32,432 bases of DNA from Candidatus Thorarchaeota archaeon (lineage in GTDB: Archaea > Asgardarchaeota > Thorarchaeia > Thorarchaeales > Thorarchaeaceae), in assembly GCA_004376265.1 (NCBI GenBank), contig SOKL01000334.1, forward strand, positions 1-32,432, in the 5' to 3' direction. This document shows positions 2,625 through 32,195 of the stretch, piece after piece (position 1 is the stretch's first letter; the number at the start of each line of letters is the position of its first letter). The notes below the pieces were generated by a model, which saw only the letters and a program-made list of their open reading frames with translations, ran no database searches and was not told the DNA's origin. Position numbers and translations under genes: made by a program.

Positions 2625-3242
2625 GTGGTTTTCATAAATCTATTCCATCTTCTAGCTATCTGTGGAATGCTCAGTCCAATCATTTACACAGTGATGTGGA
2701 TTCTAGGAGGGATCTTGGACTCAGATTATAGTCACATTCGTGATGACGTTAGTACCCTTATTGCAGTTGATGCTCCAAGCAAGAAACTCCTTGACAAGTT
2801 TATCATAACATCAAGTACTCTACTGTTGCTTTTCTATGTTGGACTACATTGGGGAATAAACAATGGAATAGGGTCAATCATTGGCCCCATCTTGTTCGTG
2901 ATCAGTGGACTCCTAGGAGTACTTGTCGCCATCTTCTTTCCGCTTGATGCGGGAGGTGAACTTGTGACCACAAGTGGGAAAATGCATCTCGTTCTGATTG
3001 CAATATCAGGGATATTGGCTACTGCAGGGATGGTTGTACTTTGGTTTAGTTTGGTATCAGATACAGTCTGGGGTGCATTCGCTACATTCTCACTGATTAC
3101 AGCAATTGTGTCTCTAGTTCTCGTAATTGCTACCTCTATAGCTGCTACGAGTAATCACCTAGGATTAGTCGAACGATTTATGGTCAGCACCTACCAAGTC
3201 TACTACTTTGTTCTAGCATTGATGGTGTTTCTGACAAATTAG
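2625..3242 (+). CDS. DUF998 family integral membrane protein
   Basis: This 205-residue protein has about six hydrophobic segments. It carries the DUF998 pattern: a first transmembrane helix, then a loop with DYSHIRDDVSTL, and later FPLDAGGE between helices (this family often has a Pro-Cys/Leu-Asp motif here). Its biochemical function is unknown. The start is a GTG one base after the thiolase stop, so the two genes are probably co-transcribed and translationally coupled. No Shine-Dalgarno sequence is obvious. An internal ATG about 15 codons downstream is possible but would remove most of the first helix. Confidence 0.75.
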   Translation: MVFINLFHLLAICGMLSPIIYTVMWILGGILDSDYSHIRDDVSTLIAVDAPSKKLLDKFIITSSTLLLLFYVGLHWGINNGIGSIIGPILFVISGLLGVLVAIFFPLDAGGELVTTSGKMHLVLIAISGILATAGMVVLWFSLVSDTVWGAFATFSLITAIVSLVLVIATSIAATSNHLGLVERFMVSTYQVYYFVLALMVFLTN

Positions 3243-3251
3243 AGGCAGAAA

Positions 3252-4535
3252 TTATAATTCAGGAACGCCCTCTCCTGAATAATCAAGCCATTTCTCCATC
3301 CTTGATCGAGATTCCTTTCCAAGCTTTTTCTGTATCAAGTCGAGAAATGATTCTGATGTTATCGACTCGTTCTGGGTGCAAATCCTAGCAAATTCCCCGA
3401 TAGTTTTCCTGAACTTTGTAATTCCAACAGATTCTGCAACGTCATTAAGTAGCAAAAATCCACGAAAATAGAAAGCCGCATAGGATTCATCTTGTTCACG
3501 AACAAGGTTTCTGATTGCTGGCAAATCCCCTGCTTTCTCAAGACGTTCATTGGTTTTTGTTATCCGTGATGATAGAAAGTCATCGTTGACATAATCATCG
3601 ATAATGTATATTGAACAGAATTCAGCTAATGCCTCGTCGACCCAATTATCATAAGTCAGGGGGGATGCTTTACAAAACCAGTCATGACATATCTCATGAC
3701 TCATCGCTTGAAGAACTGCATTATGTAGATTCGATTCAGTTGGATAGCCCCCACCCACAACCACCATCCCTGCTCGGTTGTAAGCACCTCCCAGTTGTCG
3801 AGGTGTTATCACGAACCTAAGAGGTGCCTCTGTACCTCGGGGACCAAGCCAGTTCTCTAGCATACCCCTGATTTTGTGAATATGCTTGTCAAACATCTTC
3901 TGAGAGGAAACCATTCTCTTGGTCCCCCAGAAAAAGCTCTCTGGGTCAATATGAGCATCCCTGAGCGGCATCCCTATCAAGGTGATATCATTCACTTGTC
4001 GTTCTTGATTCCAAGTCCATACAGATGTCTTATCAAATACCTCCGAACTTGAATTCTCTCCATTTGCTTCCCAAGTCCAATTAGGTGGACCTTCCAAAGT
4101 GATATGAAATTTCATGTATGCTGTCATAGTGAGAGGCACAGGATACCAAGCACTATAGCAAGCGAGCTCTACAAAATCACTCTTGATGTACCCCATGGTT
4201 GGTTTCTTTGAACCCTTTTTGGGAGGATGTATCTGCCCACCGTATTCGAAATCAATAACGATCGGTTCCTGTTTGATTCCATCTTTTTCTACAGTCGCTT
4301 CCAATCCCCATAATTCACCATTGTAGAATCCTGGTACTTTTCTCTCATCAGTTCTTTGCAAGTTCACAGGAAGAATCTCGTCTGCAATTCGTTGTGAAAC
4401 ATTCTTCCATTTCAATCCTCGATTCAGCACGAATAAAAACTTCGTTTCTGGTACTGAAATGATGGCTGTTCCTCTAACTCTAAGCCTTCCTTCTTGTGGA
4501 ATAATCTTACAGCTGAGGTCGTACTGAACTGACAT
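3252..4535 (-). CDS. M1-like zinc metallopeptidase (gluzincin)
   Basis: The 427-residue protein has HEICH at residues 280-284 and a downstream Glu in NWVDEALAEF (about residue 301). This matches the HExxH...WxxE zinc site of M1/gluzincin peptidases, with the third ligand two residues nearer than in classic M1 enzymes. The N-terminal 200 residues are beta-rich and resemble the M1 N-terminal domain. The aminopeptidase GxMEN substrate motif is replaced by a NRAGMVVVGGG stretch, so exopeptidase activity is unproven. No signal peptide is seen. The start is supported by GGTGA 8 bases upstream of the ATG. It lies downstream of the nitroreductase gene on the same strand with a gap of about 65 bases and may share a transcript. 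Confidence 0.8.
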   Translation of the reverse strand: MSVQYDLSCKIIPQEGRLRVRGTAIISVPETKFLFVLNRGLKWKNVSQRIADEILPVNLQRTDERKVPGFYNGELWGLEATVEKDGIKQEPIVIDFEYGGQIHPPKKGSKKPTMGYIKSDFVELACYSAWYPVPLTMTAYMKFHITLEGPPNWTWEANGENSSSEVFDKTSVWTWNQERQVNDITLIGMPLRDAHIDPESFFWGTKRMVSSQKMFDKHIHKIRGMLENWLGPRGTEAPLRFVITPRQLGGAYNRAGMVVVGGGYPTESNLHNAVLQAMSHEICHDWFCKASPLTYDNWVDEALAEFCSIYIIDDYVNDDFLSSRITKTNERLEKAGDLPAIRNLVREQDESYAAFYFRGFLLLNDVAESVGITKFRKTIGEFARICTQNESITSESFLDLIQKKLGKESRSRMEKWLDYSGEGVPEL

Positions 4536-4601
4536 TCTAAATCACCTGTTTTCGAAATCGTGTCAACCTTTTGAATAGATTGAATACTTCAAGATGGAGC
4601 T

Positions 4602-5381
4602 CTATTTTATTTTGTGAATTGCTACATCAGGGTAAACAAGAAATTTCCAATCACCACTCATACCCTCTACGCGCGCACCTAGTTCCAGGTGCAACATAGC
4701 AATTCCACAATCAAGTTTTCTTGAAACATTGAATCCCTCTCTTTTACTATTTGCAGAAACAGTAATCGCGTCACGGTCAATCTTGAATCTCCATGGTTGT
4801 CTGTTTGCAGCTGATGGAGCTATTCTCACTGCTTCTAGTGCAGTTCTGACCCACTTCTTATCATCCACATCTCCACTCAAAACGAGCTTATCGAGATTCT
4901 TACGTCTATACTGTTTCGAAGAAACGCCCACTCTGTCAGTTTCTTTCTTTGAATACCCAATGGGCGTAATTCCCAAAACGCGTTCACCATCTTTGAGACT
5001 GACCTGTTCCATGACAGGCTCACGACGATAAAATCCTCCCACCCAGCACGTATTCAGGCCAAGAGCAGTAGCTTCGAGAATGACCCCCTCGCCTAGATAT
5101 CCAGTGATAGTTTGAACATTTGGTGCGTCCATGTCACCAATGAATGCAATATAGTATGGTGTTTCTTTGACCTTATAGAATAACTCACCTACAGCACCTT
5201 TGAAAACGTCTTTTGAAGGATTCCTCACAAGGACAGCTCTTGCTCCTGAAAACGGTCTGAAATCGTTGCAGACTTTTTCAATTCTCGCAGTCACCTCATC
5301 ATCTGGAACTTCACCAGAATATCGTCTCTGTGAATGTCGAAGGAAAATGGCATCGTACCAAGATTTTACAGGAATTTCCAT
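4602..5381 (-). CDS. Nitroreductase-family flavoprotein
   Basis: The protein resembles the double-repeat nitroreductases (the TM1586-like group), which bind FMN and reduce nitro or related compounds with NAD(P)H. The N-terminal RHSQRRYSG block is the phosphate-binding Arg-Arg-x-Tyr motif. A central GYLGEGVILEATALGLNTCWVGG-like block and a C-terminal IAPSAANRQPWRF block are the other family hallmarks. The ATG at 5381 is favoured because a TATA-like sequence lies about 35 bases upstream. An in-frame GTG at 5402 would add seven residues. The physiological substrate is unknown. Confidence 0.85.
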   Translation of the reverse strand: MEIPVKSWYDAIFLRHSQRRYSGEVPDDEVTARIEKVCNDFRPFSGARAVLVRNPSKDVFKGAVGELFYKVKETPYYIAFIGDMDAPNVQTITGYLGEGVILEATALGLNTCWVGGFYRREPVMEQVSLKDGERVLGITPIGYSKKETDRVGVSSKQYRRKNLDKLVLSGDVDDKKWVRTALEAVRIAPSAANRQPWRFKIDRDAITVSANSKREGFNVSRKLDCGIAMLHLELGARVEGMSGDWKFLVYPDVAIHKIK

Positions 5382-5446
5382 TGTAACCAAATAGATGTTC
5401 ACATCGATGACACATTAGTACATTCCGTAGCGGCAAAATGAAATGG

Positions 5447-5531
5447 CGCCGAGGACGAGATTTGAACTCGCGCTTCACGAAGAAACTGGTTTTCAAGACC
5501 AGCGCCGTAATCCGGGCTTGGCTACCTCGGC
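5447..5531 (-). tRNA. tRNA-Ser, anticodon UGA
   Basis: An 85-base cloverleaf is complete. The acceptor arms GCCGAGG and CCTCGGC pair over seven bases. The D arm has a GCC/GGC stem. The anticodon stem CTGGT/ACCAG encloses CTTGAAA, with anticodon TGA at loop positions 34-36. A class II variable arm contains CTTC/GAAG, followed by a T arm with TTCAAAT. The discriminator is G, as in serine tRNAs, and the 3' CCA is encoded (complement at 5444-5446). No intron is present. A TATA-like octamer at 5556-5563 sits about 28 bases upstream of the 5' end. Confidence 0.95.
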
Positions 5532-10493: not shown

Positions 10494-12734
10494 ATGCAAC
10501 GAAAGCGAGGTGCAGACCTCCTTAGGGAGATTCATGGTGAATTACTTACTGAGAGTGAGAGAGATGAGTTAGTCAGGGAATTGAAGAAAGAATCAGAGAT
10601 ACTGCAAGATACTGAGAATTGCAGTTTCCGAGATCTGGACCCTGAAGAAGTGCATCGACTATATTACGAAGAAAAGTTCTCTCAAAGAAAAGTAGCTGAA
10701 GTTCTAGGTTTTTCAAGGGATGCAATTCAAAACCTTTTCAAAACCCAAATGTGGAAACCTAGACCGGTGGGGGGTGTTGAGAAAGACATTGACCACCAAG
10801 AAGTCTATCGTATCTGTGTTGAAGAGGGGCGCTCCAAGAAGGAAGCTGCTGAGATTCTTGGATGCAAGTCGATAAGACCAATCAATCGTATTTTGAATGA
10901 GAAAGATTGGAAGACCCCACTTGAGGTAAAGATGGAAACTGAGATTGATCCTGATGAGGTTCACCGACTGCATTTTGAGGATGGGTGGTCTTTCATCAGG
11001 ATAGCCAATCAATACGGCTATGAATCGAAGGATATCATCAGCAAACTATTCAAAGAGAGAGAATGGATTCCAATTCCTATAGCAAACAGAGTTGTCTACG
11101 AGTTCCCTTCAGAGATTGAAGAAGAACACCGGATTGAGCCATCTAGAATCAGTGATGCTTTTGAACATCTAGGAGATTCAGAGGACATCTCACCCTTGGA
11201 CATGGCTCGCTGTATTGAGAAAGTCATGTCTTCATCTCCTTCTGAATCAAGAGTCGAGTGGATGGGACTCTCTTCTCAATCTAAGTGGAACACAAGGGTT
11301 ACTAAAGTGCTTGAGGATGAGCTGACGGAAGTAGAAACCTCACTGAATGAACTTCTTGGTATTTCTAAAGAATCCAAGATGAAGGTCCGCGTGGGATTTG
11401 TAGATGGTAAACTCTACATCCGACATCAAGACAAGTCCGAATACAACTGGATGAACATCTATAACAACGAGCTCTTCTACTTCAAGTCTGTGGATGATAA
11501 ATTCAAACTTATGCATGAGATGAGAGCAAGGCTAGGTCTGAGCACTAATATGGACCTGGGTAGGCTCATTGACCAACTCACAGACCGTGAGTCAGCTGAG
11601 GGGAATGGATACAGCGACATCAAGGAGTGCCAGGATGAACATCTGCGCGCTGAAACTCTTCATCTTATACTTGATACAACAGGACAAACATTGTCTGATA
11701 CTCGAGATGTGATTCAATGTATTGGAAAGATTCGTGGTGGAAAATACGAGGGAAAAGGGGGAATTAGAAATCCAAAATTTCCCACCGGTTCCGACGAAAT
11801 TGACATCATGTTTGCAAGATTCTTTGGTCTTGGACTATCGGACGGTCATATTAGTAAAACCAGTGATGAATTTGTGTATGCTGAGAAGAATCCTGACCGT
11901 CGTAGAATCGTTACTGAGCATTCCAATGACTTTGGAGATGTTTACTATAAGGAAAAAGAAATCAAGGGTGAGATACGTCAAATTCAGTTTGCATCTGCAT
12001 TTGGTCGTATCTTGAAAAGAAGGGGGTTTCCAGTTGGTGATAAGAGTATCCTGAACATTGGTCTTCCTAATTTCATAAAAGAAGGGTCATTGCAAGTAAT
12101 ATGCGTATATTTCGGTAATCTGTGGCCGGAGGATGGTTGTTTCACTATAGAATACCTGCGAAATGTTGCATATTTCACATGGGATCGTTCAGTTGTTGTT
12201 AGAGATCCAACAAAGGAAGTAGAATATGGTTTCAAGGCAGTAGTAGCTGATGACCAATTATCACTCTTTGAAAAATATGGGGTACATAATGAAGAGGATT
12301 TGAAAAACGGGTTCAAAGAAGAGTTTCATATGACATCGAAGACCTTAGAGGAACTTATACGATCAAAGAACCCCAAAGTATCTTCTCCAGCAGAAGAACT
12401 CAAAGAAATAGTACTCTCTAACTCATCTAAACTCTTGAATGATGAGATTGAAGCTCTACGTAGAGTGGGTGTGCATGCAAATCAAAGACTCCTGAAACTC
12501 ACATATCATGTTGAATCATCACGGGTATCAATCTCTTATAGAGGTAAAATCTATAGAAAGAAGGATGTCATGCGAACAGCGTTAATTATGTCACCTGATG
12601 ATATGTGTAAACGAGCTAAAGTTGAAGAATGGATGAATCTTCGTCCTAAACTAAGAAGAGAAACCGAAAGAGAACTTGCTGACCCTGACAATATAGATGG
12701 AAACGACGGTGAAAAATCATTAGTTACTCAATGA
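10494..12734 (+). CDS. LAGLIDADG homing-endonuclease-like protein with three N-terminal helix-turn-helix repeats
   Basis: This 746-residue protein has three tandem repeats of about 45 residues (roughly 49-90, 98-141 and 151-193). Each begins D-x-x-E-V-x-R and has a helix-turn-helix shape ending in a Trp-Lys/Ile-x-Pro motif, suggesting modular DNA recognition. Residues 443-451 (FFGLGLSDG) and 540-548 (FGNLWPEDG) match the two LAGLIDADG motifs, both keeping the catalytic Asp. The intervening GDKSILNIGLPNFI stretch is the usual pre-motif-2 linker. No splicing domains flank it, so it is free-standing and not an intein. The central 200 residues resemble those of the minus-strand protein at 25.4-27.7 kb. 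It has its own TATA box and AGGTGA. It splits rpl23 from rpl2, consistent with a mobile homing gene. Confidence 0.7.
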   Translation: MQRKRGADLLREIHGELLTESERDELVRELKKESEILQDTENCSFRDLDPEEVHRLYYEEKFSQRKVAEVLGFSRDAIQNLFKTQMWKPRPVGGVEKDIDHQEVYRICVEEGRSKKEAAEILGCKSIRPINRILNEKDWKTPLEVKMETEIDPDEVHRLHFEDGWSFIRIANQYGYESKDIISKLFKEREWIPIPIANRVVYEFPSEIEEEHRIEPSRISDAFEHLGDSEDISPLDMARCIEKVMSSSPSESRVEWMGLSSQSKWNTRVTKVLEDELTEVETSLNELLGISKESKMKVRVGFVDGKLYIRHQDKSEYNWMNIYNNELFYFKSVDDKFKLMHEMRARLGLSTNMDLGRLIDQLTDRESAEGNGYSDIKECQDEHLRAETLHLILDTTGQTLSDTRDVIQCIGKIRGGKYEGKGGIRNPKFPTGSDEIDIMFARFFGLGLSDGHISKTSDEFVYAEKNPDRRRIVTEHSNDFGDVYYKEKEIKGEIRQIQFASAFGRILKRRGFPVGDKSILNIGLPNFIKEGSLQVICVYFGNLWPEDGCFTIEYLRNVAYFTWDRSVVVRDPTKEVEYGFKAVVADDQLSLFEKYGVHNEEDLKNGFKEEFHMTSKTLEELIRSKNPKVSSPAEELKEIVLSNSSKLLNDEIEALRRVGVHANQRLLKLTYHVESSRVSISYRGKIYRKKDVMRTALIMSPDDMCKRAKVEEWMNLRPKLRRETERELADPDNIDGNDGEKSLVTQ

Positions 12735-22222: not shown

Positions 22223-23077
22223 TCATATCAAATGCTGGTTCTTCGAAGCCCGAATGAATATCTCCTCCCCCGGACTTGCCTCGGCAAAGTCTCCCATGTA
22301 TTTGACCCACTTCTCTGAGTATTTGATATCCTCAGAAAGAAAATCGGGCCTCCGTTCTTTCAGATATCGAAGATAGTATGAAATGAATTCTCTATCTGAA
22401 CTACCACTGAACTTGTAGGTTGGGAACAAGGACTCTAGTTTTCCAAGACAGAAGATCATTCCCTTTGTAGCTTGAACACCCACACGTTCAGCCATATCAC
22501 CGACAACAATCACAGTTCCACCCATCATACGTATCGCTGATTGTGGACCAACGTTTCCTTTGACAGCAAGGAATCCTTTTCGCATATGCGCTGCCATCTC
22601 ACGCCCTACGTTACCAGCCACATAGACGCGTCCACCTTTCATACCATCTGTACTACCACGATAGCCAGAACAGAGGTAATCTCCCGCATCACCCTCAATC
22701 TGGATGTTGCCTCCTTCCATTTCTGCCGCAGCCCAATCACTAACTGATCCTTTCACATGGATACGACCAGCAATCATTTCAGCTCCAAGATACATTCCTG
22801 TATCCCCTTCGATAGTGAGTCTTCCTCCGTTCATCTCCTTCCCAATCATCTTCACCTTTCTCAGATCACCTTTAACAACGATATCAGTTTCTTCAGGTGT
22901 TGGACCACTCTCTCCACTGATGTCAAAGAATTCTTTGAGTTGTATGACCTGATTGCCTTGTTGCAGGGGTAGCTCCCCAATCGCATTGGCAGTCTTTCCA
23001 GCAAAATGAGTAGGAGTAATAGAATCCGCTTCCAGAGGTAATTCAGGTGTTTCCCGTAGTGACAATGTCACTGTCAT
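22223..23077 (-). CDS. fwdC: Formylmethanofuran dehydrogenase subunit C
   Basis: FwdC/FmdC is the beta-helix subunit of the enzyme that attaches CO2 to methanofuran (or releases it) at the start of the C1 branch. The protein is built of imperfect repeats of the G-x-x-G-x-x-x-G-x-x-M-x-x-G type between about residues 75 and 215, also seen in the glutamate synthase C-terminal domain. The catalytic subunits A, B and D are absent here. It is divergent from ftr across 124 bases and 15 bases upstream of mch. Confidence 0.9.
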   Translation of the reverse strand: MTVTLSLRETPELPLEADSITPTHFAGKTANAIGELPLQQGNQVIQLKEFFDISGESGPTPEETDIVVKGDLRKVKMIGKEMNGGRLTIEGDTGMYLGAEMIAGRIHVKGSVSDWAAAEMEGGNIQIEGDAGDYLCSGYRGSTDGMKGGRVYVAGNVGREMAAHMRKGFLAVKGNVGPQSAIRMMGGTVIVVGDMAERVGVQATKGMIFCLGKLESLFPTYKFSGSSDREFISYYLRYLKERRPDFLSEDIKYSEKWVKYMGDFAEASPGEEIFIRASKNQHLI

Positions 23078-23201
23078 GAGTCCATCCTCCTTGTTTTCTG
23101 GAAATAATCCCCGTCATAAATGCTTTTACAGTTCTCCAACGCCTGTAGGAAAAAAGAAAAGGGCGGTAGACCTTCGAATTTTTACACTTGGGTGCGTTAT
23201 T

Positions 23202-24098
23202 ATGGAGATAAACGGAGTTCCTATAGAAGATACTTTTGCTGAGGCATTCAGTATGCATATGAATCGAACGATAATCACAGCCTATGATGAGGAGTGGGCA
23301 CGAACCACAGCTACTGAAGCCACTGGCTTTGGCACATCAGTAATTATGGCCCCTGCAGAGGCTGGGATAGAGTACATCATGTCTCCTGATGAAACCCCAG
23401 ATGGGCGTCCAGGAGTGCGTGTGATCTTTGCTGTTGGGTCAAAGAAGAAATTGGAGCCACAACTCTTGGCACGACTCGGACAGTGTGTGTTGACAAGCCC
23501 GACAGCGTCCGCATTTGATGACACTCCGAAACCGAAGGACCGCTACGAGATTGGTAAGAAAATTGCCATGTTCGGTGATGGTTTCCAAACCAAGAAGGGT
23601 CCTATTGATGGGAGGGTCTTATTTCTCATTCCAAGGATGAGTGGAACCTGTGTAATGCAGAACATGTTTGGTCGAGTAAAAGGAGTTGCTGGTGGCAACA
23701 TAATCTATACCTGCGAGGACGTTGAGAGTGGGATGAACAGTGGAAAGGCTGCAGTGAAGGCAATCGAGAAAGTAGAAGGTGCCTATACACCGTTTCCAGG
23801 TGGTCTCGTGGGTTCCGGCTCAAAACCCTCATCAAAATACAAAGTCCTATTTGCATCTACAAATGAGAGGTTCTGTCCCACACTGAGAGCACTGGTTCCT
23901 GATACACATGTGCCAAAGGGAAGTGAGTTCGTACAGGAGATTGTCATCAACGGTCTGACCGAGGCGAATGTTGCTGAGGCAACGAAAGTAGCTATCGAAG
24001 AGGTCTGTAAGCATCCCGGTATCACTAAGATGACTGCTGGTAACTACGACGGAAAGCTTGGACAGTACCAGATTAAACTACATGATCTGTTCAAATAG
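23202..24098 (+). CDS. ftr: Formylmethanofuran:tetrahydromethanopterin formyltransferase
   Basis: Ftr passes the formyl group from formylmethanofuran to tetrahydromethanopterin. The 298-residue length and the N-terminus MEINGVPIEDTFAEAFSMHM are diagnostic. The blocks GTSVIMAPAEAGIE, GDGFQTKK and PRMSGTCVMQNMFGRVKGVAGGN also fit. The ATG at 23202 is chosen because the family starts here; upstream in-frame codons would add a 42-residue tail overlapping fwdC. A T-rich element about 25 bases upstream may be its promoter, divergent from fwdC. Confidence 0.95.
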   Translation: MEINGVPIEDTFAEAFSMHMNRTIITAYDEEWARTTATEATGFGTSVIMAPAEAGIEYIMSPDETPDGRPGVRVIFAVGSKKKLEPQLLARLGQCVLTSPTASAFDDTPKPKDRYEIGKKIAMFGDGFQTKKGPIDGRVLFLIPRMSGTCVMQNMFGRVKGVAGGNIIYTCEDVESGMNSGKAAVKAIEKVEGAYTPFPGGLVGSGSKPSSKYKVLFASTNERFCPTLRALVPDTHVPKGSEFVQEIVINGLTEANVAEATKVAIEEVCKHPGITKMTAGNYDGKLGQYQIKLHDLFK

Positions 24099-24950
24099 TC
24101 AGTCTTTCTTGGTTCCATTTGATAAGATCTTTCCAACCTCTAAAGGAGTTTCTGAAAACATCATAGGTTGATTTGGAGAGTATGACGGTTCTTGGTTGAC
24201 CAGTTTCATGATCATCTCATCTCCGGTATCAAAGACACCTCTGAACTGTATCTCCAAGATAGGACTATACAACAGGAGAGGGAGGAATATCGCTATCATC
24301 ACATAACGGAATGGCCATAGATCGTATCCTCCTACTCCAAGAATTAGCTCATTTAGCTTGAATGCGATTTCAATGAACCCCCACCAAAAGCCAAAGAAGA
24401 TACTGACCTGTCGGAGATGTTTCAACCTATTGAACAATCCAAATGCTCGAACCATCCAGTCATCATACTCCCGATGTCCAAAAGGATAATTCAGAACTCC
24501 TCTTTTCTGCACTGTTATTACTGCAAGTTTTCCGATGAATTCCTTGTTTTCATTCTCAACAATGGCAAGCGTTCGGAACCGTTTCCTGAAGAATCCGCCT
24601 ATTGTCATGATGGAGAAGGCAAGCATCACCACCGCCCATACAATGGTTAGGGCCGCCATTATTGCTACTATAATTATGAGGCAGATAATTACACCCTCCT
24701 CACCACTGCCGCCTCCGCCACCACCACCACCATAACAGTCACCACCCCCGCCGCAACATCCGTTGCCAAATACTTCAGATGTCACTGATACACGACCAGT
24801 TTCTTGGGAATAGACGGCATTACTTCCAGGATTTACACCTGTAATACTCTCAATCTCCTTCTTGAGAGTCGAACTAGATATGCCATATGCTCGTATTGCT
24901 AGGACTTTCTTTGGCTCATCAGCCTCTGAATAATAATCCACTTGCTCCAA
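24099..24950 (-). CDS. Membrane protein with a Cys/Gly-rich segment
   Basis: No family is recognised. The N-terminal 60 residues look soluble. Residues 62-82 form a cysteine/glycine-rich patch (CCGGGGDCYGGGG and further Gly), followed by a strongly hydrophobic helix pair. About two more hydrophobic helices lie in the second half, with a cytosolic tail. The three cysteines next to the membrane could bind metal or a lipid, or be a flexible low-complexity spacer. The GGAGG upstream fits a GTG at 24941 (9-base spacing) better than the TTG at 24950. It ends next to the convergent ftr stop. Confidence 0.55.
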   Translation of the reverse strand: MEQVDYYSEADEPKKVLAIRAYGISSSTLKKEIESITGVNPGSNAVYSQETGRVSVTSEVFGNGCCGGGGDCYGGGGGGGGSGEEGVIICLIIIVAIMAALTIVWAVVMLAFSIMTIGGFFRKRFRTLAIVENENKEFIGKLAVITVQKRGVLNYPFGHREYDDWMVRAFGLFNRLKHLRQVSIFFGFWWGFIEIAFKLNELILGVGGYDLWPFRYVMIAIFLPLLLYSPILEIQFRGVFDTGDEMIMKLVNQEPSYSPNQPMMFSETPLEVGKILSNGTKKD

Positions 24951-25080
24951 CCTCCATAATTCCTAGAAACCTCTGTGATTATCACTTCTTCGCTTTTCAA
25001 TTACAAAGAACCCTGTAGAAATCTTTATCACCGATTTTCTTGCGAAGTGCGAAGTGACAGTCCTTGATTGTCATATGGAA

Positions 25081-25114
25081 GCCTCAGTAGCTCAGACTGG
25101 TTAGATCGCCTCCT
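25081..25114 (+). pseudogene. tRNA 5'-half fragment ending in the anticodon loop
   Basis: The sequence matches the first half of an archaeal elongator tRNA: acceptor 5' arm GCCTCAG, then TA, a D arm with GCTC and the loop GG, and an anticodon 5' stem CCTCC. It stops at the anticodon loop, where TTTTT follows. No GGAGG stem partner, T arm or CTGAGGC acceptor 3' arm is found within the next 400 bases. The D stem has one mismatch (GCTC/GATC). This looks like a relic left by integration or deletion. A split tRNA half is a less likely alternative. Confidence 0.6.
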
Positions 25115-25136
25115 CCTTTTTCAGTGACAACTTAAT

Positions 25137-25403
25137 ATGTTTTCAAAACTAGCAAATGTCCGAGTTAAATTGGTGTATCATAAGTATAGCTACGACGGTC
25201 TGAGAAATGTGCAAGCACAATACAGAAAACAATGTGTAATTTGTCCAAAGAAAGGCACTATGGAGAGAATCAGAATTAGTATTGGCCCCTTGGGACTAGG
25301 CGAGAGGGAGAGAAGTGCCTGTGATGGTTGTCCAATTGGAAAAGAACTTCGGTCAATTCAGGAAGAAATGGTCCGAAGGAGAAAAAGGGGTTGGGACATT
25401 TGA
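25137..25403 (+). CDS. Small protein with two CxxC pairs (zinc-ribbon-like)
   Basis: This 88-residue basic protein has Cys pairs at CVIC (about 33-36) and CDGC (about 62-65), spaced as in a zinc ribbon, followed by a charged C-terminal helix. No function is recognised. It starts 23 bases after the tRNA fragment and has no strong ribosome-binding site. It points away from the minus-strand cluster, with a short gap between the 3' ends. Confidence 0.55.
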   Translation: MFSKLANVRVKLVYHKYSYDGLRNVQAQYRKQCVICPKKGTMERIRISIGPLGLGERERSACDGCPIGKELRSIQEEMVRRRKRGWDI

Positions 25404-25454
25404 GCTTGTCTTAAAGCCCCCTCCTCATGAAAAGAGCTAATTGAAACTATCATT

Positions 25455-27719
25455 CTAAAGTTGTTTCTTAATTCTTGCAACGTCATCGGGTATTAGTATC
25501 AACCATTCCTGAACCATCATATTCTTTCGTGGGTCATTTGGAGGAGCAATCAAGGCCCACCTAATTGAGTCGTCTTTTCGCTCTGTTGTTGCTACCCATT
25601 TCAAAGAAATTCTACCCGTTTCATTGTAAAGTGTAATGTATTCTGGATACACATGAATTTCAATTCCTAATTTGTTAGCTAGAGAAACTTCATCATCCAA
25701 CAATCTGCTTCTATTTTTCTCTACAACTGAAAGTATGTGTTCGACAATTTCAGATTCAGACTCATCAGGATGCTTCGCATAATTCTCAAGTCTTGTTATT
25801 GGAACGTAGACCTCATTCGAATATCGTCTGGTATGTTTAAATTTTACTAGAAACTCGATTTCGTCAATAGATAATTCCGATTCCATCTTATACTTTACAT
25901 CAGTAGTTCCTAGTTTTAGAACATTTGTTCGGCTCCATCGAAATCCATTACTCTGATCAAAGCAACCATCTTCCGATATCAGGTCTTCAAGATAGGCTAC
26001 GTATGATTCCATTGAAGCTTCTCTGATAATACTAGAGAGTCGTTCATTTCGAATAGGTTTGTCACCAGAAGTAAAACCCCAGTAAATGAATGCATTTCCA
26101 ATTGGTTTCGGTATCCACATACGATAACTTTTGTTGAATTCATTAGGTTCTATTTTGAATGCCAAATCCCCAAATTGTTGAAATAAATTGGCTACAATCT
26201 TTATCCTCTCTTTGTTAGCTTCGGAATAAAATAACCGACCATCTTCTCCTAACCAGCAATCACTATTGATAATAGCACCAAGTCTAGCCCGAAGGATCTC
26301 TAGTTCTGTGCCCTTCAAGAGTTTCGGATGAATAACACCACCTCGCCCATTACTCCCTGTCATCCTCTCAATCTTATCTTCAAGATATCTTGGTGAAACA
26401 CCAATAATATCGCATTGAAGGTGAAAGATTTCTCCTAGAACTCTCGATTTTGCATTTCTATTCAGAATCTTATCTTTAGGTCTGTTTGAAACAATCTGTT
26501 CAACAAGTTTATTCAAATGACGTAAAATTTCGTACCCATTATTCAGACCGAGATGTCTTCCAGTTTCCAGTATTATCTGTGCAAGATTGCTTGGATTAAA
26601 ATGGAAATACTTCCTTGCCCACACGTTTATCATATCATTTGGTGTCTTGTCAGGATTCCATAGGTATATTCTCTCGTCCACAATGCCAATACGAACGCTT
26701 TGTTCTGAAATATTCAGATTCAATTGAGTATGTACAATTCTTTCAATTTCTGTTCTATTTTCTTGCAACCAACTCTCTATCAATGAACTATTTTCAATTT
26801 TGAAATCCATGTATGCAATCCTTGATTTTGTTTTCAATAATGCATGAGTTATCTCATTGGCAATAGATACAAAATCTTCTTCTGCGAAGAATTTTGGATC
26901 TAGTTTTGCTAACACGCTATTCAATTTACAAGAATCGCCTGAGGAAATATTATACATTGAAGCATCAATCTGTTCCATAGTTTCAATGTGCTTAGATTCT
27001 AGATATCTTTCCACGATGTCAGACTCTTTCCCTCGAATACATCTACTTAACCCATTTTTCTTCCATTCATCTATTATCCGAATTTCTTCATTCCGACGTA
27101 GATGTGAAATCAGTATAGTTTCTTTCCCTTTTTGATAGTCACTAATTCTTGGTTGTTGGATATCATGAATAGGAGCCAGTTCAGTCTGTTTCATATAATG
27201 ATTGTTTCTGACAGCTAGATAGATACTTGATTTTCTATATTGCTCCACAAAACTATCATCTTCTCTCTTTTCAGGATATTTCTCGAGAAGTCTATCAATA
27301 TCCCGCATGGATTCAATTCTGACTCTAGGTGGTCCACCATGTGTTTCTTCAAATAGGAATTGAACTAATGCATCATCCATTTCTCTGACTAATTTTGGTA
27401 TGTTGTCCTTGTGGTTATTTTCAAAGTACTCTTCCGCTTCACGAAGATGTTTTTCATATCCTCTTCTCAATCTAAATTCAGGATTCGCAAGAAGTGCAGT
27501 TACAAATTTCTGTTTAGTAACAACTATTTCTGGTTCAAATAGTGAGAATTCTGCATGATTAAGATGAACCCAATCTTCCCTTTCTTCACGAGTTAGAAGT
27601 TTAGAATGGTAATCACGAAGGAACCGATCACGTTCCTCAGAATTAAGTGACGCTTTGGGTTCTATCTCTTCTATTTTCTCCAATGTTTTATCTTCTTCAT
27701 AGTCGAATGATTCATCCAT
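25455..27719 (-). CDS. LAGLIDADG-like protein, last gene of the membrane ATPase cluster
   Basis: This 754-residue protein is a distant paralogue of the 746-residue protein inserted before rpl2. Both share a central block (here SVRIGIVDERIYLWNPDK, residues 341-358) and the same C-terminal layout. Residues 480-488 (LGAIINSDC) and 577-585 (LEDLISEDG) match the two LAGLIDADG motifs with both acidic residues kept (487 and 584), although Gly of the first motif is Cys. The N-terminal 300 residues are charged and helical, without the three helix-turn-helix repeats of the paralogue; a QQPRISDYQKGK stretch near 188-199 resembles one helix-turn-helix. Whether it cleaves DNA is unknown. Its ATG overlaps the ATPase stop, with a GGGGAG site upstream, so translation is coupled. 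Confidence 0.6.
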   Translation of the reverse strand: MDESFDYEEDKTLEKIEEIEPKASLNSEERDRFLRDYHSKLLTREEREDWVHLNHAEFSLFEPEIVVTKQKFVTALLANPEFRLRRGYEKHLREAEEYFENNHKDNIPKLVREMDDALVQFLFEETHGGPPRVRIESMRDIDRLLEKYPEKREDDSFVEQYRKSSIYLAVRNNHYMKQTELAPIHDIQQPRISDYQKGKETILISHLRRNEEIRIIDEWKKNGLSRCIRGKESDIVERYLESKHIETMEQIDASMYNISSGDSCKLNSVLAKLDPKFFAEEDFVSIANEITHALLKTKSRIAYMDFKIENSSLIESWLQENRTEIERIVHTQLNLNISEQSVRIGIVDERIYLWNPDKTPNDMINVWARKYFHFNPSNLAQIILETGRHLGLNNGYEILRHLNKLVEQIVSNRPKDKILNRNAKSRVLGEIFHLQCDIIGVSPRYLEDKIERMTGSNGRGGVIHPKLLKGTELEILRARLGAIINSDCWLGEDGRLFYSEANKERIKIVANLFQQFGDLAFKIEPNEFNKSYRMWIPKPIGNAFIYWGFTSGDKPIRNERLSSIIREASMESYVAYLEDLISEDGCFDQSNGFRWSRTNVLKLGTTDVKYKMESELSIDEIEFLVKFKHTRRYSNEVYVPITRLENYAKHPDESESEIVEHILSVVEKNRSRLLDDEVSLANKLGIEIHVYPEYITLYNETGRISLKWVATTERKDDSIRWALIAPPNDPRKNMMVQEWLILIPDDVARIKKQL

Positions 27720-30429
27720 TACTCGACTCCCCCATTACAGATTCGTCAACTCTCAAATATTCGAATGTTATTGCAATATACTGGTTGACATCACTAGGAT
27801 TTTCGATATCGAGAAACTCAGAAACGAGATTGCGAATATAATGTTGTGCTGTTTCCTCATTCTCTTTCAAGAAACAATTGTAGTTCTCGCTAACAATTTT
27901 TGATTTGACCAGATATCTTAGATTCCAAAGAATAACAGGATCAGGTTCCCATTCCGGCATAACTAATGGAATATTTTGTACGGTGAGATGTGGATTATCG
28001 ATATAGAATGAATCCATCAAACTAGAAACTTGGAGGTCTGAATATCCATCTCCTATTTCCTGATAGTGAACAACTTGCACATTCACAGCTTGGTCAGTAA
28101 ATCCTTGATGAACTACTGCTTCACCAATGCTCAATGAACCGAGATAGTTCAGCTGTTCATCTGTAAGGTTGGCTTGACCACCAACAATCACACGTTCCCG
28201 TTTATCTTTGAGAAGATGGAGAATAGTGATACCGGGCAATTTAACTGCAGCATCAGCTAAATTTCCTGGTAATTGGTCAAGAATAAAAACTCCAAGCCCA
28301 TATCCTCTTGCTTCTCGCAATAGACGCACTATACTGTTTATCGCCTGCTGTTGACTTGCATGACTCTCATATAGGCCACCACCGGTATTGATGCGTTTCA
28401 ATAAGTGATGAGCCTCTTCCAAAACCAAGATGTGCTTCAGCTCTTGTTTAACTGACTTATTCTGAGCCTCAAGATATTCTGCCACGCCCACCAGAATAAG
28501 ACTACCAATCAGACTAAGTTTTCTCGATGGAAGATTTCTGAGTTCTATAACCGTTGGATTGTTGAGTAACTCAGGAATTGAGATTCCTCTCCCCGCATTA
28601 AGAATGACAGCAATCTGAGAATCATCAATAATCGCCCCAAATCGGGCTTTGAGAGCCCCAACAAAGTCTTGATTCAATCCAGGGCCATAATCAAGCTCAC
28701 AGACAACCATCTCCATAGCTCTGTAGAGATCTGTAAGTAAGATTGACCGACCCCGTGTATTCTCAAGTATGTTCCACCCGCAAATAGAATACACACGTCG
28801 AAAAACTTTGGAGATATGCTCTAGCAGAATACCCTCAGTTGGCCAAGCGGCTGTGAAACAGGTGATTAGACCGTCGATATGTTTCTGAATTGGTACCCCC
28901 GGCGGCACTTCAAAGGGATTGTAACGGAAAGGAGCAGTATCCTCATCACCCACAGTAAAGATTCGGAGATTGGAAACTGATTCACTCAGTAGTCGCATCT
29001 CAGATGTGGAGGGATCAATCACAAGAAATGGAATACCTAGATTGTCAAACTCGTGAAGAAGATGCTTCATAGTATTTGATTTTCCACTCCCTGTTTGACC
29101 GAACAGACCTGTGTGAAGACAGAATCTATCCTTAGGAATATCATAGATCTGTTCGAGACGTTTTCCCTTATACAGAACCTGTCCCAAGGGAATTGATTCA
29201 GTCCTCTCTGAATCAAGCAAGGGTAGCAGAAACTCAGGAGGAATTGATCTTCGAGAAACCCCAGGGAGCGGTTCCGAGAAGTCAAGAAGTGCAAGTAGCT
29301 TGGCTCCACTCACAGAAGTACGTCCCAGAAGGTGGTTTCGAAGTAACAATCGATTCCAATTTCTTTGAAAACTATCTACCTTGGATGCGATTATCTTTAC
29401 ACCACTCCATACTGATCTCACTATTGCTTCTATCTGATTCATACTATGTCCCCTTTCTCCAAGAATATTCACACTGGTTCGAAAGACACCAGTTTCCTCA
29501 CATGCCTCAATCTCAGCCATCTGTTTGTAGATACTGCTTAGCTGATGCTCTTCGACACGATATGGTGTTCTAGATTGATACTCTAGATTTCCACTTTGGA
29601 CTCCTGCATACCTTTTCATACGAGGCTGAGTGCCCGAATTGAATGAAAATTGATTTCGAGCCTTGATTTTTCTATCAATCAGTCTCTGAAGTAAGACCCC
29701 ATAATTGTTTGAGAGTCGATTTGGTAACCCCTCAATCGAGAGGGAGTCCATTGATTCATGGCATTCAGTATCCAAGTCTGAGTAGGCATTCACAAGTTGT
29801 TGTCTAACAAGGACCTCGAATGAGTAGTCCATCTGTTTCAGCCAAGTATCTGCCACCTCTCGGGATTGGTGGACCTTCTCAATGGCACGTTTCCAGTTCT
29901 TGTCTATAGATACCATGAAGACAACAAGTTCTACTAGCCCATTCTCCCCCTTTGCCTCTACTGTATAGGTGGTTCCTGACTTATGACAATCCTCCCAAAG
30001 GGGATGGAGCAACCTCAGTTCTTCATTCGCATCCTTTCCTGAAATGTCAGTCCTGGAAGGAATTCCTATGATTCTGACTGCGTTCATAGCTACAAAGATA
30101 CGACTCAGAGAGAAGCACAGAGTATCATCTAAATCATAATCGAGGATGACAGGAGAGCTGGAATCTGCATCCGATGGACGAAATGCTTCATAGACCACCA
30201 TTGGAGTCACAAGAAGCATCATAATCAGGGTCCAAGATGGATCATAGTTTCCAAGGGTGAGCTCCGCACTTACAAACACAACAAGCCCGAGAACAGCACT
30301 GATTTCAGTACCAAAACGATTTCCTCCTATAGACAGTGCAAGATGAGCCAACGTCATCACTAGCACACTGACACCCATTAAGACAAGGAACGGAACAATA
30401 CTACTGAGCCAAGCGATTAAATCAAACAC
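27712..30429 (-). CDS. Membrane-anchored HerA/VirB4-like AAA+ ATPase
   Basis: This 905-residue protein begins with about three hydrophobic segments (residues 10-80). A long middle region follows. The C-terminal RecA-like motor has a Walker A GQTGSGKS at 444-451 and a Walker B HILVLEEAHHLL at 666-677, with a DUF87/HerA-style VRLLREARGYGLGVFILDQLP block and a KDKRERVIVGGQ motif that may be the arginine-finger region. The fold is that of HerA, FtsK and VirB4 translocases, which move DNA or secreted proteins through hexameric rings. Membrane anchoring and membrane-protein partners favour a conjugation or secretion role. The GTG start overlaps the stop of the previous gene, and the stop overlaps the start of the LAGLIDADG-like gene. 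Confidence 0.8.
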   Translation of the reverse strand: MFDLIAWLSSIVPFLVLMGVSVLVMTLAHLALSIGGNRFGTEISAVLGLVVFVSAELTLGNYDPSWTLIMMLLVTPMVVYEAFRPSDADSSSPVILDYDLDDTLCFSLSRIFVAMNAVRIIGIPSRTDISGKDANEELRLLHPLWEDCHKSGTTYTVEAKGENGLVELVVFMVSIDKNWKRAIEKVHQSREVADTWLKQMDYSFEVLVRQQLVNAYSDLDTECHESMDSLSIEGLPNRLSNNYGVLLQRLIDRKIKARNQFSFNSGTQPRMKRYAGVQSGNLEYQSRTPYRVEEHQLSSIYKQMAEIEACEETGVFRTSVNILGERGHSMNQIEAIVRSVWSGVKIIASKVDSFQRNWNRLLLRNHLLGRTSVSGAKLLALLDFSEPLPGVSRRSIPPEFLLPLLDSERTESIPLGQVLYKGKRLEQIYDIPKDRFCLHTGLFGQTGSGKSNTMKHLLHEFDNLGIPFLVIDPSTSEMRLLSESVSNLRIFTVGDEDTAPFRYNPFEVPPGVPIQKHIDGLITCFTAAWPTEGILLEHISKVFRRVYSICGWNILENTRGRSILLTDLYRAMEMVVCELDYGPGLNQDFVGALKARFGAIIDDSQIAVILNAGRGISIPELLNNPTVIELRNLPSRKLSLIGSLILVGVAEYLEAQNKSVKQELKHILVLEEAHHLLKRINTGGGLYESHASQQQAINSIVRLLREARGYGLGVFILDQLPGNLADAAVKLPGITILHLLKDKRERVIVGGQANLTDEQLNYLGSLSIGEAVVHQGFTDQAVNVQVVHYQEIGDGYSDLQVSSLMDSFYIDNPHLTVQNIPLVMPEWEPDPVILWNLRYLVKSKIVSENYNCFLKENEETAQHYIRNLVSEFLDIENPSDVNQYIAITFEYLRVDESVMGESSNG

Positions 30430-31240
30430 CTAGAATCATCATCCTATAGAGTTCGAGAATAGAGTTCAGAAAAACCAGTGAGAACTGGACATTCATTGCA
30501 GGAAAAACAGCTAGTAGCAAGACTGACAGGATTGCATGGTAGGTCCCTTGCTGACTTGACCCATTCATGAAGTACCGAAGTATCTCAATCCCACCGCTAC
30601 AACTCCCTGTTATCCCAACAATGTACACGATGACCATGACTAGAATGTTGATGTACCAACCAGTAACTCCCAAGGGAATTGGAATAGGTATCGTAGTCCC
30701 AACTATCTCAAATGGTAATAGGTAGATTATTGGAATGACGAACAGAAAGGGAAGGATGCCTTGAAAGTACTGATGGATGGTCAGAATCAACCCTACTGAC
30801 AGAAGACTCCAGAAGTAACCCCGAAAGACTGCTTTTACTAGGTTGTCACGCTGCCCCGTCAAGTGTGATATGAGGTTTCGGACCAGATTGCTTCCACTCA
30901 TCAGCACGATTCCGTAGACGACTATGAACAGGAAGGGAATAGCTGAAGATATACTCCAGACTGAGCCTGCAGTTACCACACCGAGTAAGGTTAGGATTGG
31001 CCAACCAATCTCAAGCATCAACCAGCTTCCTGCAAACAGGGCGATGGATCTGAATGGCACATCAATACCTGACCCGAACCTCGACAACCAACGCATCATT
31101 GATGACCCAGACTTCTCCCAGCTGCTTGTCCTAGGATGTGTCATCTTGTAGGCAGAGCCCATTTTCCTTGAATAGTACTGACCGACTCGATGACTCCTTG
31201 AAACTGGTTCATTTCGCTCAGGATCAGACTCAGAATACAT
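30422..31240 (-). CDS. Polytopic membrane protein of the ATPase cluster
   Basis: The 272-residue protein has about seven hydrophobic segments after a 60-residue charged N-terminus, and no recognised family. Position and topology resemble the channel-type membrane proteins (TrbL/VirB6-like) of type IV secretion systems, but no sequence motif proves it. The ATG at 31240, following a G-rich site, is preferred over an earlier in-frame TTG at 31273. It overlaps the 3' end of the upstream gene by 11 bases and its stop overlaps the ATPase start, so the operon is tightly coupled. Confidence 0.65.
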   Translation of the reverse strand: MYSESDPERNEPVSRSHRVGQYYSRKMGSAYKMTHPRTSSWEKSGSSMMRWLSRFGSGIDVPFRSIALFAGSWLMLEIGWPILTLLGVVTAGSVWSISSAIPFLFIVVYGIVLMSGSNLVRNLISHLTGQRDNLVKAVFRGYFWSLLSVGLILTIHQYFQGILPFLFVIPIIYLLPFEIVGTTIPIPIPLGVTGWYINILVMVIVYIVGITGSCSGGIEILRYFMNGSSQQGTYHAILSVLLLAVFPAMNVQFSLVFLNSILELYRMMILGV

Positions 31241-31850
31241 CCAATCCCCCCAGTAGTAGTATTGTGAGTGCAATTGACAGAAATGGCAGCAAGAGAGTCA
31301 GGATTCTACCATATACTCCCTTAGATGCTGCTTCAATATCGAGTTGTGTCTGAAGGTTGTTGATTGCATCTGGCAGCAGGAGGAAGAATGGCACAAGACT
31401 GCACAGGGCTAGGATGATCTGGAAAGAGGGAGGGATATCCAGTTCTGATGAGTTCTCCTCAATCTGAATCCCTACAAGATACACATGATGGTCTGAACTT
31501 GATATCTCAAGTCTAGCACGTTCCTCTCCGAACATGACACTATCAAGATTGACATATTGGATGGAACAAAGAATAGAAGAGCCGTTTGTGACATAGTAAA
31601 CCGATCTTGTATATTGATCATTCTTTACATGAAACGGCTCTTGGACTTCAAGCCTTTCACCAACAGATTTGTTATAATAGAAACTGAAGACTATTGTCAT
31701 CTCTGACTCTTGGCTGATACCATTCAACCCTATCTGATACCATTCTCCAGGTTTTGCAAGGACGATGCAGGGAGTATCCTCAGCATCACTGATAATTGGC
31801 GACGCTGAGAACACTACCATTAGTAGGAGAATTACACTCTTTATCCTCAC
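31230..31850 (-). CDS. Secreted/anchored protein of the ATPase cluster
   Basis: A GTG-initiated 206-residue protein has a signal peptide (residues 1-23: a short basic start and hydrophobic core, then an A-E-D cleavage-like site). A beta-rich extracellular domain of about 120 residues follows. Two C-terminal hydrophobic helices flank a short polar stretch (residues 145-165 and 183-202). No family is recognised. A GA-rich site precedes the GTG. It probably displays a domain on the cell surface next to the membrane channel. Confidence 0.65.
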   Translation of the reverse strand: MRIKSVILLLMVVFSASPIISDAEDTPCIVLAKPGEWYQIGLNGISQESEMTIVFSFYYNKSVGERLEVQEPFHVKNDQYTRSVYYVTNGSSILCSIQYVNLDSVMFGEERARLEISSSDHHVYLVGIQIEENSSELDIPPSFQIILALCSLVPFFLLLPDAINNLQTQLDIEAASKGVYGRILTLLLPFLSIALTILLLGGLDVF

Positions 31851-31868: not shown

Positions 31869-32195
31869 CTAGAATAGGGTTGTCACAATACTCGTCAGAA
31901 GACAGAACGACAGGTAGCAGGCACCAATTAACACGAGTGGGAGAAACAACTGAAAGACCGCTGTATAGACACGATACTTCAGTCCACCAATGTGCTGTGA
32001 CTGACCGAGCTCCACATCAATGGCATCAATCAGGTTCTTTGATCTCGGGGGAACGATGACCACAATCTCGTACATGAGCCAGATCTGTAGTGCATTCATT
32101 CCTAGTCCCATTATTAGTCCGACCAGACCCTGAGTAAGGATGTCTGCTGGACCCATGAGGAATTGAACAATATCGAATCCTTGAATTTCAATCAC
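31869..32195 (-). CDS. Small membrane protein, first gene of the ATPase cluster
   Basis: This 108-residue protein has two or three hydrophobic segments around a basic, polar loop (PPRSKNLIDAIDVELGQ). No family is recognised. It starts with GTG at 32195 with no ribosome-binding site. A TATA-like AATATTAA (32218-32225) is centred about 26 bases upstream, so the message is probably leaderless. It begins the five-gene minus-strand operon. Confidence 0.55.
   Translation of the reverse strand: MIEIQGFDIVQFLMGPADILTQGLVGLIMGLGMNALQIWLMYEIVVIVPPRSKNLIDAIDVELGQSQHIGGLKYRVYTAVFQLFLPLVLIGACYLSFCLLTSIVTTLF

What the first reader, a model, noticed from the sequence alone, without database searches (positions are those of the whole stretch)
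25081..25114. tRNA 5'-half fragment broken in the anticodon loop beside the ATPase cluster
The fragment ends where many tyrosine recombinases cross over (the anticodon loop), and no 3' half is nearby. It lies between core genes (ftr side) and the possible mobile cluster, so it may be an attachment-site scar or element boundary. The T run after it would also fit a transcribed split tRNA half.
Basis: partly seen in the sequence, partly recalled or inferred. Interest (0 to 1): 0.55.

Follow-up and report, generated by a model that had tools for sequence, protein, structure and literature searches.

The report
Broken tRNA-Thr at genomic island edge
In one Asgard (Thorarchaeota) genome the gene for a threonine transfer RNA is cut in its anticodon arm where a block of foreign genes begins, and related islands in other Thorarchaeota sit at the same kind of tRNA site and carry a gene for a DNA-cutting 'homing'-type enzyme instead of a recognisable integrase.

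Summary
Bases 25081-25114 are nucleotides 1-32 of tRNA-Thr(GGT). Twelve congeners carry the intact gene, where visible at the same place beside ftr, and homology to the window stops exactly at 25114. The orthologous right flank of our genome is on another contig (C383), where only nucleotides 54-76 of a tRNA-Thr remain, behind AT-rich foreign DNA. The locus is therefore interrupted on both sides, by at least 8.9 kb, and an assembly error is unlikely. A split tRNA is not supported: no 3' half in the assembly, no pairing leader.

The gene nearest the break (25455-27719, minus) encodes an unnamed protein whose predicted structure matches LAGLIDADG homing endonucleases, with both motif acids conserved. 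Its four closest homologues, in three other genera, lie beside tRNA-Thr(GGT) or tRNA-Ala(GGC), which share the arm CCTCCTTGGYA. One (G018) is a 12-kb island between an intact tRNA-Ala and a displaced 3' half starting at TCCTTGG; another half (G044) starts at the same base. These match the window's break.

Best reading: left edge of an anticodon-arm-targeted island, possibly mobilised by the endonuclease. The intact tRNA-Thr copy probably lies in the assembly gap.

The parts
23076..24098 (+). ftr (formylmethanofuran-tetrahydromethanopterin formyltransferase), conserved left flank
   Evidence: Pfam/NCBIfam; same neighbour of tRNA-Thr in relatives
25007..25080 (+). conserved upstream region of tRNA-Thr(GGT), with the A/T-rich TTTATC promoter-like box
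   Evidence: 82-87% identical to G003, G006, G009, G015 together with the tRNA
25081..25114 (+). 5' part (nt 1-32) of tRNA-Thr(GGT), intact in congeners, broken here in the anticodon arm
25114..25115 (.). junction: native tRNA | island DNA (T5 run follows at 25117-25121)
   Evidence: homology to relatives ends at 25114
25137..25403 (+). orphan 88-aa ORF, no homologue in 38 relatives
25455..27719 (-). 754-aa protein: variable N-terminus and C-terminal LAGLIDADG-endonuclease fold; relatives lie beside tRNA-Thr(GGT)/tRNA-Ala(GGC)
27712..30429 (-). 905-aa HerA/CedD-like membrane-anchored DNA-translocase ATPase
30422..31273 (-). 283-aa multi-TM protein of the HerA module
   Evidence: conserved with the module in C259, G002, G005, G008, G012, G013
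31230..31850 (-). 206-aa membrane protein of the HerA module
31869..32195 (-). 108-aa membrane protein of the HerA module

Best explanation
The fragment is the chromosomal left half of the native tRNA-Thr(GGT) gene, cut at nt 29-32 of its anticodon arm, and it marks the left end of a genomic island. SHOWN: the gene is intact at this locus in congeners; homology ends at base 25114; the right flank lies on contig C383 behind foreign DNA and a 3' tRNA-Thr piece; the nearest island gene is a LAGLIDADG-type protein whose closest homologues sit beside tRNA-Thr(GGT) or tRNA-Ala(GGC) in three other genera; displaced tRNA halves there begin at the same point (TCCTTGG). INFERRED: the islands enter by a break or crossover at the shared arm CCTCCTTGGYA, possibly made by the LAGLIDADG protein and repaired from an island-bearing donor (homing), or by an integrase supplied in trans. 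Cargo such as the HerA-like DNA translocase or nucleases is carried along. INFERRED: an intact tRNA-Thr(GGT), which the cell needs, lies in the unassembled gap between C215 and C383, between two successive insertions.
For: Intact tRNA-Thr(GGT) in 12 congeners, with matches ending at 25114. The gene is single copy in 14 of 15 congeners. C383 carries the orthologous right flank with a tRNA-Thr 3' piece after foreign DNA of 36% GC; the LAGLIDADG side of the window island is also AT-rich, 36.5% against 44%. Same gene order tRNA > LAGLIDADG protein(-) > HerA(-) in G018 and G058. G018 is a full 12.1-kb island from an intact tRNA-Ala(GGC) (with an inferred D-loop intron) to a displaced 3' half starting TCCTTGG; G044 has a displaced half starting at the same base; G021 has the homologue behind an intact tRNA-Thr. 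G013 has a displaced tRNA-Thr 3' half starting CCTTGG behind its intact copy. Fold: PI-SceI, I-DmoI and I-Tsp061I among the top PDB hits, best E 2.4e-5. Both motif acids kept in 16/16. The stop codon of the gene abuts or nearly abuts the tRNA in G058 and G018.
Against: In a classical integration one end keeps an intact tRNA; here neither visible end does, so at least two events or a later deletion are needed. The two contigs are not physically joined. In G021 and G044 the LAGLIDADG gene has the opposite orientation relative to the tRNA or half. HerA/LAGLIDADG pairs also occur at loci without tRNAs (for example near ftsZ in G002). No cleavage or mobility was tested. The MAG is fragmented (393 contigs) with 8% contamination.
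Confidence: 0.68

Rival explanations
1. Ordinary tyrosine-integrase island: an element integrated at the tRNA-Thr(GGT) anticodon loop or 3' end, its integrase gene lies in the gap or was lost, and a later deletion removed nt 33-76 from the left end. The LAGLIDADG protein is only cargo.
For: tRNA-Thr 3' ends with a constant ~24-bp core are scattered as scars behind the intact gene in G005, G008, G009, G011 and G013. The anticodon loop is a known crossover site for archaeal integrases, and pTN3-like integrases use the 5' half (PMC8371274).
Against: No integrase was recognised by Pfam in the visible parts or in the complete G018 island. Deleting the only tRNA-Thr(GGT) would be lethal without another copy.
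Confidence: 0.35
2. Functional split tRNA: the 5' half is transcribed to the T run and trans-spliced to a 3' half made elsewhere.
For: The promoter region and 34/34 bases are preserved and a T5 run follows. Split tRNAs are known in archaea (PMC3218864).
Against: No 3' half with the anticodon was found in the assembly; the 3' piece on C383 lacks nt 33-53. Only two bases separate the half from the T run, so there is no GC-rich pairing leader. The break at 32/33 differs from the 37/38 and 30/31 joints described in PMC3218864.
Confidence: 0.03
3. Assembly chimera or strain mixture: the junction at 25114 is false.
For: Fragmented MAG with 8% contamination; roughly a fifth of expected tRNAs were not recognised (my estimate).
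Against: A second, independent contig (C383) also shows the same tRNA locus interrupted, and nt 33-53 were not found in the assembly. The breakpoint coincides with the breakpoints in G018 and G044.
Confidence: 0.07
4. Chromosomal inversion or rearrangement with one breakpoint in the tRNA, not an insertion.
For: tRNA-Thr is inverted relative to its neighbours in G002 and G007.
Against: The right side of the window matches no conserved neighbourhood of the relatives' tRNA-Thr locus, and the 3' piece on C383 keeps the native orientation.
Confidence: 0.1

Closest known systems
Caldiarchaeum subterraneum tRNA-Thr(GGU) locus (Sugahara et al. 2012, PMC3293823)
   Same: Same isoacceptor. A 5' fragment (there nt 1-27) is left beside an insertion, with intron variation around the locus; the authors propose a mobile element as the cause.
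   Different: There the intact tRNA with an extra intron is 1.8 kb downstream and the insertion carries a putative recombinase ORF. Here no intact copy is seen, the break is at nt 32 and the neighbouring gene is LAGLIDADG-like.
tRNA-integrated elements with tyrosine recombinases (SSV1, pNOB8, pTN3, PYG1; PMC8371274, PMC9897764)
   Same: tRNA gene as target, anticodon-loop boundary, partial tRNA copies at the ends.
   Different: No integrase found; neither visible end carries an intact tRNA in this genome.
LAGLIDADG homing endonucleases (I-DmoI, PI-SceI, I-Tsp061I)
   Same: Predicted fold and both acidic motif residues of the 754-aa protein.
   Different: Free-standing gene next to a HerA-like ATPase and beside tRNA genes, not inside an intron or intein; no Pfam or NCBIfam family recognises it.
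Ced/HerA-type archaeal DNA translocases (PMC9905601, PMC11868833)
   Same: HerA-family ATPase with several small membrane proteins; weak CedD model match.
   Different: Scores far below the CedD and HerA cut-offs; function untested.
Split tRNAs of Nanoarchaeum, Staphylothermus, Aeropyrum (PMC3218864)
   Same: A 5' tRNA half with its promoter.
   Different: No 3' half, no leader, break before the anticodon.

Membership tests
Split (trans-spliced) tRNA | separate 3' half encoded elsewhere | tested here: not met
   No segment with nt 33-53 found in the assembly; the assembly is incomplete
Split (trans-spliced) tRNA | GC-rich complementary leader / BHB at the junction | tested here: not met
   Half is followed by CC then TTTTT
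tRNA-integrated genomic island | synteny break inside a tRNA gene that is intact in relatives | tested here: met
tRNA-integrated genomic island | restored tRNA at one end and displaced part at the other | tested here: inconclusive
   Met in the related G018 island; in this genome the contigs end before an intact copy is seen
tRNA-integrated genomic island (tyrosine integrase type) | integrase gene in the element | tested here: inconclusive
   None in the visible 7.3 + 1.6 kb nor in the ORFs of the G018 island; the middle of the window island is not assembled
LAGLIDADG endonuclease (754-aa protein) | LAGLIDADG fold | tested here: met
   AlphaFold model, mean pLDDT 82, Foldseek to I-DmoI/PI-SceI/I-Tsp061I
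LAGLIDADG endonuclease (754-aa protein) | acidic residue at the end of each motif | tested here: met
   D487 invariant; D/E in motif 2 in 16/16
LAGLIDADG endonuclease (754-aa protein) | site-specific DNA cleavage / homing | not testable with these tools
   needs biochemistry
Permuted tRNA | 3' half upstream of the 5' half | tested here: not met
   no matching 3' half in the window

The most novel reading that the evidence does not exclude
Thorarchaeota carry a class of genomic islands that spread by a free-standing LAGLIDADG homing endonuclease cutting the anticodon-arm DNA of tRNA-Thr(GGT) and tRNA-Ala(GGC). Islands with defence-like or DNA-transfer cargo insert there without an integrase, and tRNA introns or replaced halves protect the restored tRNA from being cut again.
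Probability: 0.27. Interest if true: 0.8.

Novelty: new variant of a known kind. Interest (0 to 1): 0.5.

Why it matters
tRNA scars of mobile elements are common, but these islands appear to lack an integrase and instead keep a LAGLIDADG-type gene against tRNAs sharing one anticodon-arm sequence. If the endonuclease makes the cut, this would be an integrase-free route for islands to home into tRNA genes. It would also be a second natural case, after Caldiarchaeum and again at tRNA-Thr(GGU), for testing how mobile elements break archaeal tRNA genes and shuffle their introns.

Tried and rejected
Split tRNA: rejected (no 3' half, no leader). Permuted tRNA: rejected. Decay of the half: rejected, because U4 occurs in the intact WORH6 gene. 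Pure chance: rejected by synteny. The search for related loci with the HerA-like and 754-aa proteins in IMG/VR, and with the HerA-like protein in GTDB contigs, found nothing, probably because exact peptide seeds were too strict; whole-genome searches worked instead. No exact overlap joins C215 to C383 or C273. No direct or inverted repeat of 9 bases or more was found between the two visible island ends. The nearest weak Rfam hits (CRISPR-DR45, ToxI) are chance-level. A hit for nt 39-51 on C28 is not followed by a T arm or acceptor end and looks like coding sequence.

Full report
The observation. Bases 25081-25114 read GCCTCAGTAGCTCAGACTGGTTAGATCGCCTCCT. ARAGORN and Rfam find only the tRNA-Ser at 5444-5531 and miss this fragment, so the case rests on comparison. 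The window is the whole of contig C215 of a fragmented Thorarchaeota MAG (3.04 Mb, 393 contigs, 91% complete, 8% contamination). Searching relatives with 24900-25460 gave matches in 21 of 39 genomes (own genome included). In nearly all of them the match ends at query base 215, which is window base 25114.

The relatives continue with TGGTAAGGAGGAGGCCGCGGGTTCAAATCCCGCCTGGGGCTCCA: an intact tRNA-Thr(GGT), downstream of ftr where the left flank is on the contig. WORH6 has an intact copy identical to the window over all 34 bases, including U4. The fragment is therefore nt 1-32 of tRNA-Thr(GGT) in its native place, not decayed, and broken just before the anticodon.

Where is the rest? tRNA-Thr(GGT) is found once in 14 of 15 congeners and not intact in this assembly. 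tRNA-Thr(TGT) and (CGT) were read by eye from the tRNA hits. About a fifth of the expected tRNAs were not recognised, so absence alone is weak. The right flank orthologous to G009 (Thorarchaeota AB_25) lies on contigs C383 and C273. C383 starts with 1.6 kb of 36% GC DNA including an Mrr-like nuclease ORF, then TTCAAATCTCGCCTGGGGCTCCACTT (tRNA-Thr nt 54-76 plus 3 bases), a ~0.4-kb module, a second such 3' piece, and the native flank. Nucleotides 33-53 were not found anywhere. Both sides of the locus are thus independently interrupted, which argues against a chimera.

A hot spot. In G005, G008, G009, G011 and G013 the intact tRNA-Thr is followed by one or more tRNA-Thr 3' ends sharing a ~24-bp core, separated by ~0.5-kb modules that in several cases encode a small membrane ORF. 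G013 also has a displaced 3' half starting at CCTTGG, about 45 bases behind its intact intronless copy, with intron-like inserts. In G002 and G007 the tRNA is inverted relative to its neighbours. Congeners differ in inserts resembling introns at 37/38 and in the T arm.

The island. Right of 25114 lie an orphan 88-aa ORF, a 754-aa protein, a HerA/CedD-like ATPase and three membrane proteins, all but the first on the minus strand. The HerA module is a diverged copy of one on contig C259 of the same genome (65-66% aa identity in HerA; its neighbour was identified by eye as rpsB) and of others in congeners. The 754-aa family is multicopy in Thorarchaeota.

Its four closest homologues (G044, G021, G018, G058; 37-50% identity, three genera) all lie at tRNA-Thr(GGT) or tRNA-Ala(GGC), which share CCTCCTTGGYA..GGAGG. 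In G018 a 12.1-kb island runs from an intact tRNA-Ala with an inferred D-loop intron, through the homologue and HerA in the same order and orientation as in the window, an AAA-TPR protein, an LRR protein, a nuclease-like ORF and a membrane protein, to a displaced tRNA-Ala 3' half starting TCCTTGG. G044 has a displaced half starting at the same base, preceded by a homologous membrane protein. In G058 the stop codon of the homologue touches the tRNA's CCA end. My own rough estimate, not a tool result: two such tRNAs per 3 Mb give about 0.4% chance per locus within 3.3 kb, so four of four is not chance.

The protein. No Pfam or NCBIfam family fits. An AlphaFold model from 16 Thorarchaeota sequences (mean pLDDT 82) matches PI-SceI, I-Tsp061I and I-DmoI (Foldseek E 2.4e-5 and weaker). 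Motifs RLGAIINSDC and YLEDLISEDG keep their acids in 16 of 16. It is therefore a LAGLIDADG-type protein, probably an endonuclease; activity is untested. The 5' half ends at nt 32 and the displaced halves start at nt 29, an overlap of TCCT. Four bases is the overhang length of LAGLIDADG enzymes (own knowledge), but the two halves come from different genomes, so this is only suggestive.

Interpretation. The boundary reading is well supported; the split-tRNA reading is not. Neither visible end carries an intact tRNA, so two successive insertions flanking an intact copy in the gap, or a later deletion, must be assumed. The same genome shows a comparable layout at tRNA-Pro, and Caldiarchaeum shows it at tRNA-Thr(GGU) (PMC3293823). 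Whether the LAGLIDADG protein or an unseen integrase does the work is open. Ordinary integrases use the anticodon loop (PMC8371274), and partial tRNAs at element ends are common (PMC9897764). No paper found in the searches describes LAGLIDADG islands at tRNA anticodon arms, though the library is not complete.

Noticed in passing
L106 (G000:C383) 2807-5092: A second broken tRNA in the same genome: a 5' fragment (26 nt) of tRNA-Pro(TGG) with native promoter-like upstream, then a TnpB-like gene (PF07282, minus), then an intact tRNA-Pro with an extra D-arm intron-like insert and its own promoter-like upstream. The TnpB 3' end abuts the fragment, so its guide RNA would read the tRNA-Pro D arm, and the insert would separate that target from its motif in the intact gene.
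   Followed up: partly
L083 3693-4270, L084 10256-10970, L085, L086, L087 (minus): Cassette-like array behind tRNA-Thr: ~0.5-kb modules, several with one small membrane ORF, each closed by a ~24-bp copy of the tRNA-Thr 3' end.
   Followed up: partly
L083-L095 tRNA-Thr(GGT): Intron-like inserts differ between congeners, at 37/38 and in the T arm, the loops used by integrases; exchange of halves by integration could explain this.
   Followed up: no
L096 ~9985, L097 ~10839: In G007 and G002 the whole tRNA-Thr(GGT) is inverted relative to the neighbouring genes.
   Followed up: no
window 10494-12734 and L138 758-5831: A second LAGLIDADG-family gene in the window (746 aa) near an ftsZ-like gene; in G002 its orthologue follows a HerA module that is absent at this place here.
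   Followed up: partly
L137 (C259), L139, L140: HerA plus membrane-protein module at other chromosomal places in several congeners, a possible DNA-translocation system of Thorarchaeota.
   Followed up: no
G000:C164:9574-9593: Another isolated tRNA 3' end, probably a scar of a different tRNA.
   Followed up: no
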